Position numbers and translations under genes: made by a program
The notes under the pieces: model-generated
Told to the model about the DNA's origin: nothing
Database searches by the model: none
Seen by the model: only the letters and a program-made list of their open reading frames with translations
DNA from: Solirubrobacterales bacterium
Lineage (GTDB): Bacteria > Actinomycetota > Thermoleophilia > Solirubrobacterales > Solirubrobacteraceae
Assembly: GCA_025964115.1 (NCBI GenBank)
Contig: JAOPZM010000025.1
Coordinates: 1 to 39,559, forward strand
Direction of reading: 5' to 3'
DNA length: 39,559 bases
Shown: positions 14,320-16,578 of the stretch, piece by piece
Numbering within the stretch: the stretch's first letter is position 1
Layout of the letters: every line of letters begins with the position of its first letter

Positions 14320-14394
14320 AGGAGCCTCAGCAGGCCCTCCAAGACGGGTTGGGCCTAACCTCCAGCTGTCAGCGACGTTGCCGATATATGACCG

Positions 14395-15831
14395 ATGAGC
14401 GATTTTGCGCTCCCAACTCGGCCCCCGGGCGGGCTTGGCCCCGCAGAGCGGCTGTCGAGCGACGAGTGGCTGGCGAGACGCGTCTCGATGGGCAGCACAC
14501 GTGCGTTTGCAGTGCTGTACGGCCGGCATCATCAGGCGCTCTACCGCTACTGCCGTTCGATCGTCCGCGACGAGGACGACGCTCAGGATGCGATGCAGAG
14601 CGCGATGATGCGGGCGCTCGCGTCACTGCAAGCCCGCCAGCGCGACGTTGCGGTGCGGCCGTGGCTGTTCCGAATCGTTCACAACGAGGCCGTCTCGCTA
14701 TTGCGCAGGCGACGTTCGCACTCAAGTCTGGTCGAGGGCCTCGAGCCGGGGGACGGCGGCCTGGAGAACACGGTGGAGCAGCGAGAGCGTTTCGCCGGGT
14801 TGGTCGCCGACCTCCAGTGCCTTGCCGAGCGCCAGCGCGCCGCGTTGGTCATGCGGGAGCTGAGCGGCCTTTCCATCGCGGAGATCGCCGCGGCGTTGTC
14901 CACCACTCCGGGCGCGGCCAAGCAGGCGATATTCGAGGCCCGCTGCGCACTCCAGGAGTTCGAGGAGGGGCGCGCCATGGAATGTGAAGCCGTCCGCCGA
15001 GCGATCTCCGACGGCGACCGGCGCGCTCTGCGCGCGCGCAAGATCCGGGCGCACGTGCGCGCATGTCCCGGGTGCCGTGGCTTCGAGGCCATGATCAGCA
15101 CGCGTAAAGCCGAGCTGCACGCGCTTGCGCCGCCCCTGCCTGCACTCGCCGCGACCGCGATGCTGGCGAGGCTGCTGGCTCATGGCGCGGGCGGCGGTCA
15201 TTCGGGAGTGGCGGCGGCAGCATCGGGAGCGGCAGTCGGTAACCACGTGGCGATGTCCGTGACGGTGAAGGCGCTCGCTGCCGTGGCGATCGTGAGCGCT
15301 ACGACCGCCGGCGCGGTGCATATCGCCACGAGCCCCGATGGGCACCGTGCGATCCGCGCCCCAACGCACACAACACCGCCCCGCAGCGGCGCGCCCGGCG
15401 CTCAACCGGGCGCTCACGCAGGCAGCCCGCGGGCGACATTGCGACCTGGATCTGCCGCCAAGCTGCACGGCGCCCCAGGGGCCAAGAACGGCCAGGCGCC
15501 GGCGGGTGGGGCTCTCGGCGCTGCGGCGTCGCCGACCGGGGGCCAGCATGGACGAGCAGGACGCGAAATCGCCAACGGTCGCGACCACTCGGCAGGCGGC
15601 TCCGGCGCACGCGCAGTCCGCCGGTCGGGCTCACCGCGATCACACGCTGGCCATGGCCAGCGCTCGACCGGGCCGGGCCAGACCTCGCCGACGCGCAAGA
15701 AGGCCAAGGAAGGGAACGCGCAGGCCTCGACTCCGGCCGCAGAACGCCTGTCTGCGCGCGGAGGACTCGGCCACCCCCTCCCGAGCGGCGAAACCGAAGG
15801 CGCCGTCACGCCGACGACCCCGAGCGGCTGA
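14395..15831 (+). CDS. ECF-type RNA polymerase sigma factor fused to zinc-binding anti-sigma-like, transmembrane and low-complexity extracellular region
   Basis: Sigma region 2 AFAVLYGRHHQALYRYCRSIVRDEDDAQDAMQSAMMRAL; region 4 LAERQRAALVMRELSGLSIAEIAAAL; then RKIRAHVRACPGC (Hx3Cx2C), hydrophobic SVTVKALAAVAIVSATTAGAVHI, then Gly/Ala/His-rich tail, one reading frame. Confidence 0.85.
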   Translation: MSDFALPTRPPGGLGPAERLSSDEWLARRVSMGSTRAFAVLYGRHHQALYRYCRSIVRDEDDAQDAMQSAMMRALASLQARQRDVAVRPWLFRIVHNEAVSLLRRRRSHSSLVEGLEPGDGGLENTVEQRERFAGLVADLQCLAERQRAALVMRELSGLSIAEIAAALSTTPGAAKQAIFEARCALQEFEEGRAMECEAVRRAISDGDRRALRARKIRAHVRACPGCRGFEAMISTRKAELHALAPPLPALAATAMLARLLAHGAGGGHSGVAAAASGAAVGNHVAMSVTVKALAAVAIVSATTAGAVHIATSPDGHRAIRAPTHTTPPRSGAPGAQPGAHAGSPRATLRPGSAAKLHGAPGAKNGQAPAGGALGAAASPTGGQHGRAGREIANGRDHSAGGSGARAVRRSGSPRSHAGHGQRSTGPGQTSPTRKKAKEGNAQASTPAAERLSARGGLGHPLPSGETEGAVTPTTPSG

Positions 15832-15996
15832 CGCGCCAGCACACAGCGCCCGCCGGTTCGCGGCGCGCGTCATCGACTCTGACTTTCGTGAGCCCGATGC
15901 GTTGTAGCCCTAGGACAGCATGCGAAGAGGCGTCAGAACGCCCGGCGCTGCTGCAGATCCGGCAGATGCCCACAACCCAAGGAAGGTAATCCACCA

Positions 15997-16578
15997 ATGA
16001 TCGTCAAGAAGACCATGCTCGCCGCCGCGGCGGGCGCTCTAATGGCAATCCCGGCATTTGCTCTGCCTGGTCTGGCTCCGGCCGACCAGGGCAACGGCCA
16101 TCGGCCGAGCAACACGCCAAACAACACCACCAATCCCGGTAGCTCGCACCGGTCCTCGGAGGGCACCGAGAACGCAGGAGGCCACGGCGCTAAGCCCGGT
16201 AATTCCGGAGCCTCGCACAAGTGCAAGCCGCACAAGGTCGGCTACGTCGCGTCGGGGACGCTCGTCAGCCAGACGCTCACCAAGAATGCTGACGGCAGCT
16301 ACACCGGTGAAGTGACCGTCGAAGTCAAGCACACGAACAAGCACGCCAAGGGCGACAACAACAGCACCAAGACGTACAAAGTCGAAAACGTCCACGTCAC
16401 CTTCGGCCTTGCAGACACGAACGCCGACGGCAGCGTAGGCCTCGACGACCTGGCGAAGGGCGACCGGGTCACGCTGCTCGGCCACATCACGTCTCTGGCC
16501 AAGCACTGCAGCCAGACCGGATTCACCGCCACGACGACGATTCGCCACCTCGTCTTCCATGCGCCGGTGACGCCGTAG
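15997..16578 (+). CDS. Small secreted protein with one dockerin-like Ca-binding loop
   Basis: Signal peptide MIVKKTMLAAAAGALMAIPAFA; DTNADGSVGLDDL motif. Confidence 0.72.
   Translation: MIVKKTMLAAAAGALMAIPAFALPGLAPADQGNGHRPSNTPNNTTNPGSSHRSSEGTENAGGHGAKPGNSGASHKCKPHKVGYVASGTLVSQTLTKNADGSYTGEVTVEVKHTNKHAKGDNNSTKTYKVENVHVTFGLADTNADGSVGLDDLAKGDRVTLLGHITSLAKHCSQTGFTATTTIRHLVFHAPVTP

What the first reader, a model, noticed from the sequence alone, without database searches (positions are those of the whole stretch)
14395..15831. Single-chain ECF sigma factor fused to a zinc-type anti-sigma-like domain, TM and disordered outer tail
Seen: sigma2 and sigma4 regions, then HVRACPGC (Hx3Cx2C), a TM helix, then about 170 residues of Gly/Ala/His/Pro/Arg-rich sequence, with no intervening stop. 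Established: Hx3Cx2C is the ZAS zinc anti-sigma signature, normally in a separate protein. Inference: intramolecular membrane tethering, with release probably needing proteolysis or conformational change. The downstream secreted protein (15997) is a candidate target.
Basis: partly seen in the sequence, partly recalled or inferred. Interest (0 to 1): 0.6.

Follow-up and report, generated by a model that had tools for sequence, protein, structure and literature searches.

The report
Self-tethered sigma switch with secreted partner
One bacterial protein combines a gene-switching sigma factor, its own zinc-type inhibitor domain, a probable membrane anchor and an outer tail; fusions of this type are known from other actinobacteria, but here the switch appears dedicated to turning on just itself and a small secreted protein made by the next gene.

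Summary
One unbroken 478-codon ORF (14395-15831) carries sigma2, sigma4, a CHCC zinc anti-sigma domain (C197, H220, C224, C227), a moderately hydrophobic segment (about 285-308) and a roughly 169-residue disordered tail. The fusion is no artefact. All 79 named-genome relatives that could be read, including complete genomes of isolates, carry Hx3Cx2C at the expected place, nearly all in one long frame (a few run off a contig end). All four zinc ligands are invariant in 77 aligned sequences. As an architecture it is not new: ECF48, ECF52 (SCO4117) and ECF53 are already described as sigma-ZAS-membrane fusions, with activation by proteolysis proposed. In the 3 Mb genome it occurs exactly twice, before this gene (14355-14379) and before the secreted-protein gene next to it (15879-15903). 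The pairing recurs in relatives, even where the neighbour is an unrelated secreted protein, and a sister clade carries a different -35. The best reading is a self-inhibited, probably membrane-tethered sigma that autoregulates and drives one dedicated secreted product. Tethering, inhibition and release were not tested. Verdict: a new variant of a known kind.

The parts
14355..14379 (+). ECF-type promoter-like element CTAACCT-N13-ACGTT in front of the fused sigma gene; it ends 15 bp before the start codon, so the leader would be very short
   Evidence: Exact match; one of only two exact matches in the 3 Mb genome; same element upstream of nearly all same-genus orthologues
14395..15831 (+). Fused gene: ECF sigma factor + zinc anti-sigma-like domain + hydrophobic segment + disordered tail (478 aa)
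   Evidence: ORF and translation; fused in essentially all relatives
14515..14715 (+). Sigma region 2 (residues 41-107)
   Evidence: Pfam PF04542 E 9.7e-14
14812..14943 (+). Sigma region 4 (residues 140-183)
   Evidence: Pfam PF08281 E 2.5e-11
14962..15186 (+). Zinc anti-sigma-like domain (residues 190-264) with CHCC ligands C197, H220, C224, C227
   Evidence: Ligands invariant in 77 sequences; zf-HC2 top hit; hhalign to separate ZAS proteins 95.8%; all-helical model at pLDDT >90 up to about residue 240 and 83-85 beyond
15247..15318 (+). Probable transmembrane segment (residues 285-308)
   Evidence: Kyte-Doolittle 19-residue maximum 1.85; same place in most relatives; pLDDT <50 in a model made without a membrane
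15322..15828 (+). Gly/Ala/Pro/Ser/Arg/His-rich disordered tail (about 169 residues), presumed extracytoplasmic
   Evidence: Composition conserved without sequence conservation
15879..15903 (+). Second copy of the promoter-like element, CTGACTT-N13-GCGTT, in front of the secreted-partner gene
   Evidence: Exact match; same position in relatives
15997..16578 (+). Secreted partner (193 aa): signal peptide, low-complexity linker, then a beta-barrel domain with a conserved Cys pair (C76, C171)
   Evidence: Syntenic with the sigma gene in six other genomes of the genus; alignment A2; confident beta domain at about residues 78-188; weak OB-fold-like resemblance, best E 0.013

Best explanation
This is a single-chain ECF sigma switch. 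In the resting state the zinc-holding anti-sigma-like domain (190-264) folds back on sigma2/sigma4 in cis and keeps them off RNA polymerase, while the following hydrophobic segment anchors the protein in the membrane with the disordered tail outside. An envelope signal, by proteolysis of the tail and anchor or by a conformational change, frees the sigma part. The freed sigma reads CTRACYT-N13-RCGTT promoters. In this genome the only two exact ones are its own and that of the adjacent secreted protein, so the output is positive autoregulation plus one dedicated secreted product. Shown: the fusion, the conserved zinc ligands, the conserved neighbour, the shared promoter and its clade specificity. 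Inferred: that this sigma is the one that reads the promoter (strong), cis-inhibition and membrane anchoring (likely), release by proteolysis (plausible), and the function of the secreted protein (unknown, probably envelope-related).
For: Domains and zinc ligands. Essentially all relatives fused, including complete genomes of cultured isolates; matches to this anti-sigma domain across the class lie almost always in long frames. The sigma and anti-sigma regions are equally conserved, unlike the tail. The partner gene lies directly downstream in G008, G009, G010, G013, G017 and G019, with no other conserved neighbour. The promoter element occurs exactly twice in 3 Mb, before these two genes, and the same element precedes orthologous sigma and partner genes. 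It also precedes an unrelated secreted family B in the complete Conexibacter sp. S30A1 genome, again the only two sites there. The sister clade has GNAACYT-N12-14-NGTT instead: 19/49 there vs 0/57 in this clade, while the CTNAC element is in 30/57 here vs 2/49 there. Loci outside the set used to define the motif: 18/38. A site-2 protease family gene (Peptidase_M50) is in the genome. ECF52 SCO4117 precedent (PMC5826349, PMC8999054).
Against: No experiment shows inhibition, tethering or cleavage. The hydrophobic segment is Ala/Val/Thr-rich and only moderately hydrophobic, and the tail outside would be positively charged, against the positive-inside tendency. The model's overall pTM is 0.52 and the tools do not show domain contacts, so cis-docking was not verified. 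About half of the wider clade shows no recognisable copy of the promoter pattern. An M50 protease is present in all 14 control genomes, so its presence is weak evidence.
Confidence: 0.6

Rival explanations
1. A cytosolic cis-acting redox or zinc sensor: the CHCC site loses zinc or is oxidised (as in RsrA/ChrR-type anti-sigma factors) and lets the sigma go; the hydrophobic stretch is not a true membrane anchor and the tail is a cytosolic linker.
For: CHCC ligands strictly invariant; soluble class I anti-sigma factors carry the zinc motif more often than membrane-bound ones (PMC7406223); the hydrophobic segment is modest; the tail is positively charged.
Against: A hydrophobic segment recurs at the same place in most relatives followed by a uniformly hydrophilic tail; the promoter-linked neighbour is a secreted protein, which fits an envelope role; about half of membrane-bound anti-sigma factors also carry the motif (PMC7406223).
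Confidence: 0.2
2. The anti-sigma-like domain is not inhibitory; it is a structural module that holds an always-active sigma near the membrane, or helps it bind polymerase.
For: Zinc motifs in anti-sigma domains can be structural (RsiW, PMC7406223); the own genome also has a sigma with a hydrophobic segment and tail but no zinc domain (L002), so the domain is not needed for anchoring.
Against: The domain is homologous to separate ZAS inhibitors and conserved as strongly as the sigma core; in ECF52 a truncated sigma-only form activated expression of its own gene (PMC5826349).
Confidence: 0.1
3. Assembly or sequencing error that fused a sigma gene with a separate anti-sigma gene.
For: Most ECF anti-sigma factors are separate proteins, and separate zf-HC2 proteins lie next to ECF sigma genes elsewhere in this genome (contigs C50 and C181).
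Against: Essentially all relatives are fused, including complete chromosomes of Conexibacter sp. S30A1, Paraconexibacter antarcticus and Svornostia abyssi; no frame break in the window.
Confidence: 0.01
4. The shared element is a site for another regulator (another sigma or a DNA-binding repressor) that happens to control both genes.
For: No direct binding data; several other ECF sigma factors are in the genome.
Against: The element changes its -35 part with the clade of this sigma while the spacing stays about the same; a -35/-10 pair with fixed spacing is typical of ECF promoters; ECF autoregulation is common (PMC5826349).
Confidence: 0.1

Closest known systems
ECF52 group (SCO4117 of Streptomyces coelicolor)
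   Same: One chain with ECF sigma, zinc finger (pfam13490), transmembrane region and long low-complexity extension; actinobacterial; positive autoregulation and proteolytic release proposed (PMC5826349, PMC8999054)
   Different: ECF52 has a Pro-rich region and a carbohydrate-binding domain; here the tail has no recognisable domain, and the inferred direct output is one adjacent secreted protein.
ECF53 and ECF48 groups
   Same: C-terminal extension with a zinc-finger anti-sigma-like domain and one or two membrane helices, expected to be freed by proteolysis (PMC8999054)
   Different: Group assignment could not be tested: the ECF group models are not among the libraries
IutY of Pseudomonas putida (ECF243)
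   Same: Sigma and membrane anti-sigma in one chain; release by Prc and RseP shown experimentally (PMC8999054; see also PMC5411451)
   Different: Iron-starvation cell-surface signalling with an outer-membrane receptor; a different type of anti-sigma part
SigK-RskA of Mycobacterium tuberculosis with its MPT70/MPT83 secreted proteins
   Same: ECF sigma controlled by a membrane anti-sigma factor, with a narrow output of secreted proteins (RskA-SigK: PMC7509140; the narrow secreted output is from own knowledge)
   Different: Sigma and anti-sigma are separate genes; RskA does not rely on a zinc motif (PMC7406223)

Membership tests
ECF (group 4) sigma factors | Sigma2 and sigma4 present, no sigma1 or sigma3 | tested here: met
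   PF04542 and PF08281 above cut-off, NCBIfam sigma70-ECF TIGR02937 71.8 bits vs 42.9 cut-off; no region 1 or 3 match
Class I zinc anti-sigma domain (ZAS) | Hx3Cx2C with an upstream Cys in a helical domain | tested here: met
   C197, H220, C224, C227 invariant in 77 sequences; helices predicted
Class I zinc anti-sigma domain (ZAS) | Sequence homology to ZAS/zf-HC2 | tested here: inconclusive
   zf-HC2 is the best hit but just under Pfam's cut-off (20.7 vs 22.2 bits); hhalign to separate ZAS proteins 95.8% supports it
Class I zinc anti-sigma domain (ZAS) | Binds and inhibits the sigma factor; binds zinc | not testable with these tools
   Needs biochemistry
ECF52 | Sigma + zinc finger + transmembrane region in one chain | tested here: met
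   the transmembrane part rests on hydropathy only
ECF52 | Carbohydrate-binding domain at the C-terminal end | tested here: not met
   No Pfam domain beyond residue 228 at E<=1; the tail is low-complexity
ECF52 / ECF53 / ECF48 | Phylogenetic placement in the ECF group | not testable with these tools
   ECF group HMMs and the reclassification paper are not held
ECF48/52/53-type proteolytically activated sigma | Cleavage that releases the sigma domain | not testable with these tools
   Only an M50 protease gene was found

The most novel reading that the evidence does not exclude
A portable two-gene envelope-signalling module: a self-inhibited single-chain sigma dedicated to itself and to one adjacent secreted protein, where the secreted output has been exchanged several times between unrelated families while the promoter logic stayed the same, and where the secreted product feeds back on the sigma's outer tail.
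Probability: 0.15. Interest if true: 0.75.

Novelty: new variant of a known kind. Interest (0 to 1): 0.5.

Why it matters
Sigma-ZAS-membrane fusions have been proposed as one-protein signalling systems, but in the papers read here only SCO4117 (ECF52) had been studied experimentally among the zinc-finger type. This clade offers a cleaner case: an inferred promoter, an inferred two-gene output, a genome with only two exact sites, and a replicate in the complete genome of an isolate (Conexibacter sp. S30A1). That makes the autoinhibition-and-release question directly testable with a two-promoter reporter. It also assigns a likely regulator to several uncharacterised small secreted protein families in Solirubrobacterales.

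Tried and rejected
A first scan of genome contigs with the single protein found nothing and was repeated with an alignment. A profile of the anti-sigma region against PDB sequences gave no significant match. Foldseek of the sigma plus anti-sigma model matches ECF sigma factors only, several solved in complex with anti-sigma factors, and says nothing about cis-docking. Foldseek of the secreted partner gives only weak OB-fold-like hits (best E 0.013), not enough to assign a function. Pfam finds an EF-hand-like loop in one partner homologue below cut-off, and it is not conserved in the family, so calcium binding was not claimed. With one mismatch allowed, the promoter pattern gives 24 hits in the genome against 19 for the reversed control, so only exact hits were used. 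No Rfam family in the region. The ECF reclassification paper is not held.

Full report
What is there. The stretch 14395-15831 is one open frame of 478 codons. Residues 41-107 are sigma region 2 and 140-183 sigma region 4. Residues 190-264 form a helical domain with C197, H220, C224 and C227, the CHCC arrangement of zinc anti-sigma domains. The four ligands are invariant in all 77 aligned relatives. Pfam zf-HC2 is the best family hit but stays just below its cut-off; a profile-profile comparison with separate anti-sigma proteins from related genomes gives 95.8% probability, E 7.8e-9. A hydrophobic segment follows at about 285-308, then about 169 residues with 6% hydrophobic residues.

Is the fusion real? 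Yes. Relatives in the same genus and order are single long frames. In named genomes (Solirubrobacter, Conexibacter, Patulibacter, Paraconexibacter, Svornostia and many metagenome bins of Solirubrobacterales) all 79 relatives that could be read carry Hx3Cx2C at the expected place, nearly all in one long frame; a few run off a contig end. Across 149 genomes of the class a model of the anti-sigma region finds about a hundred matches in 50 genomes, nearly all inside long open frames. The anti-sigma region is conserved as strongly as the sigma core and changes mainly at third codon positions, while the tail changes almost freely in sequence but keeps its composition and stays open.

Surroundings. 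The gene directly downstream (15997-16578) encodes a protein with a signal peptide, a low-complexity linker and a beta-barrel domain with two conserved cysteines. It lies next to the orthologous sigma gene in six other genomes of the genus, and it is the only conserved neighbour. In other genomes the place is taken by unrelated small secreted proteins. The commonest (family B) has two copies of a C...SKKHVAGQKGTPFSxCV motif; at least two more kinds exist (L073/L077 and L081).

The promoter. Comparing upstream sequences showed a sharp element, CTRACYT-N13-RCGTT, in front of both the sigma genes and the partner genes. In the window it lies at 14355-14379 and 15879-15903, and these are the only two exact matches in the 3 Mb genome. 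In eleven genomes of the genus that carry the sigma gene, 15 of 20 exact matches fall at sigma or partner promoters (tallied; the binomial figure there is not an independent test, because the pattern was derived from some of these sites). Less circular support: (a) in loci not used to define it, a relaxed form is upstream of 18 of 38 sigma genes, against a shuffle mean of 0.35 for 57 genes; (b) it precedes unrelated family B partners too, and in the complete Conexibacter sp. S30A1 genome that strain's version occurs only before the sigma gene and its family B neighbour; (c) the sister clade of fused sigmas (support 100/99 in the tree) has a different -35 at similar spacing, GNAACYT-N12-14-NGTT, in 19 of 49 genes, against 0 of 57 in this clade. 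Roughly half of the wider clade lacks a recognisable copy. The simplest reading is that the sigma recognises this element, drives its own gene and drives the neighbour.

Mechanism. By homology the anti-sigma-like domain should inhibit the attached sigma, and the hydrophobic segment should place the tail outside. Reviews propose for ECF48, ECF52 and ECF53 that proteolysis frees the sigma (PMC8999054); for SCO4117 a truncated sigma-only form activated its own gene (PMC5826349). None of this was tested here. The structure model (mean pLDDT 83.9, pTM 0.52) supports the folds of the separate domains but the tools do not show their contacts. The cytosolic redox-sensor rival stays open because the hydrophobic segment is modest and the tail is positively charged.

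Relation to known systems. It works like the ECF48/52/53 fusions. It is not filed as ECF52 because the carbohydrate-binding domain that marks that group is absent, and placement in any ECF group could not be tested. No paper on such fusions in this order was found in the held library, which is incomplete. The new parts are the Solirubrobacterales clade, the shared promoter, and the dedicated, exchangeable secreted neighbour.

Noticed in passing
L002:724-2043 (- strand), own genome G000:C23: A second sigma in the same genome has a hydrophobic segment and a roughly 200-residue Gly/Ser-rich tail but no zinc-ligand motif, so membrane-anchored-looking sigma factors without the zinc domain also exist here.
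   Followed up: partly
L053:3115-3139 (G015:C64): An exact copy of the promoter lies right after the sigma stop codon with no partner gene behind it; the partner homologue sits on another contig (G015:C1) with its own copy of the element. Looks like a relic of a moved or lost partner.
   Followed up: partly
L057, L058, L061, L064 and L068 downstream of the sigma gene: Small secreted protein family B with two copies of C...SKKHVAGQKGTPFSxCV; no Pfam family above cut-off. Function unknown.
   Followed up: partly
L202, L206, L208 (G028, G025, G026): Long frames (478-511 aa) with a zf-HC2 domain above Pfam's cut-off at about residue 210-244, perhaps another family of sigma-ZAS fusions; the sigma part was not checked.
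   Followed up: no
window 14380-14397 and upstream regions of orthologues: Several orthologues share GCCGATATGTGA between the -10 element and the start codon, leaving a leader of only a few bases: possibly a leaderless transcript.
   Followed up: no
G000:C50 (L004, L199) and G000:C181 (L003, L205): Separate zf-HC2 proteins lie next to ECF sigma genes elsewhere in the same genome, so conventional two-gene pairs probably coexist with the fused kind.
   Followed up: partly
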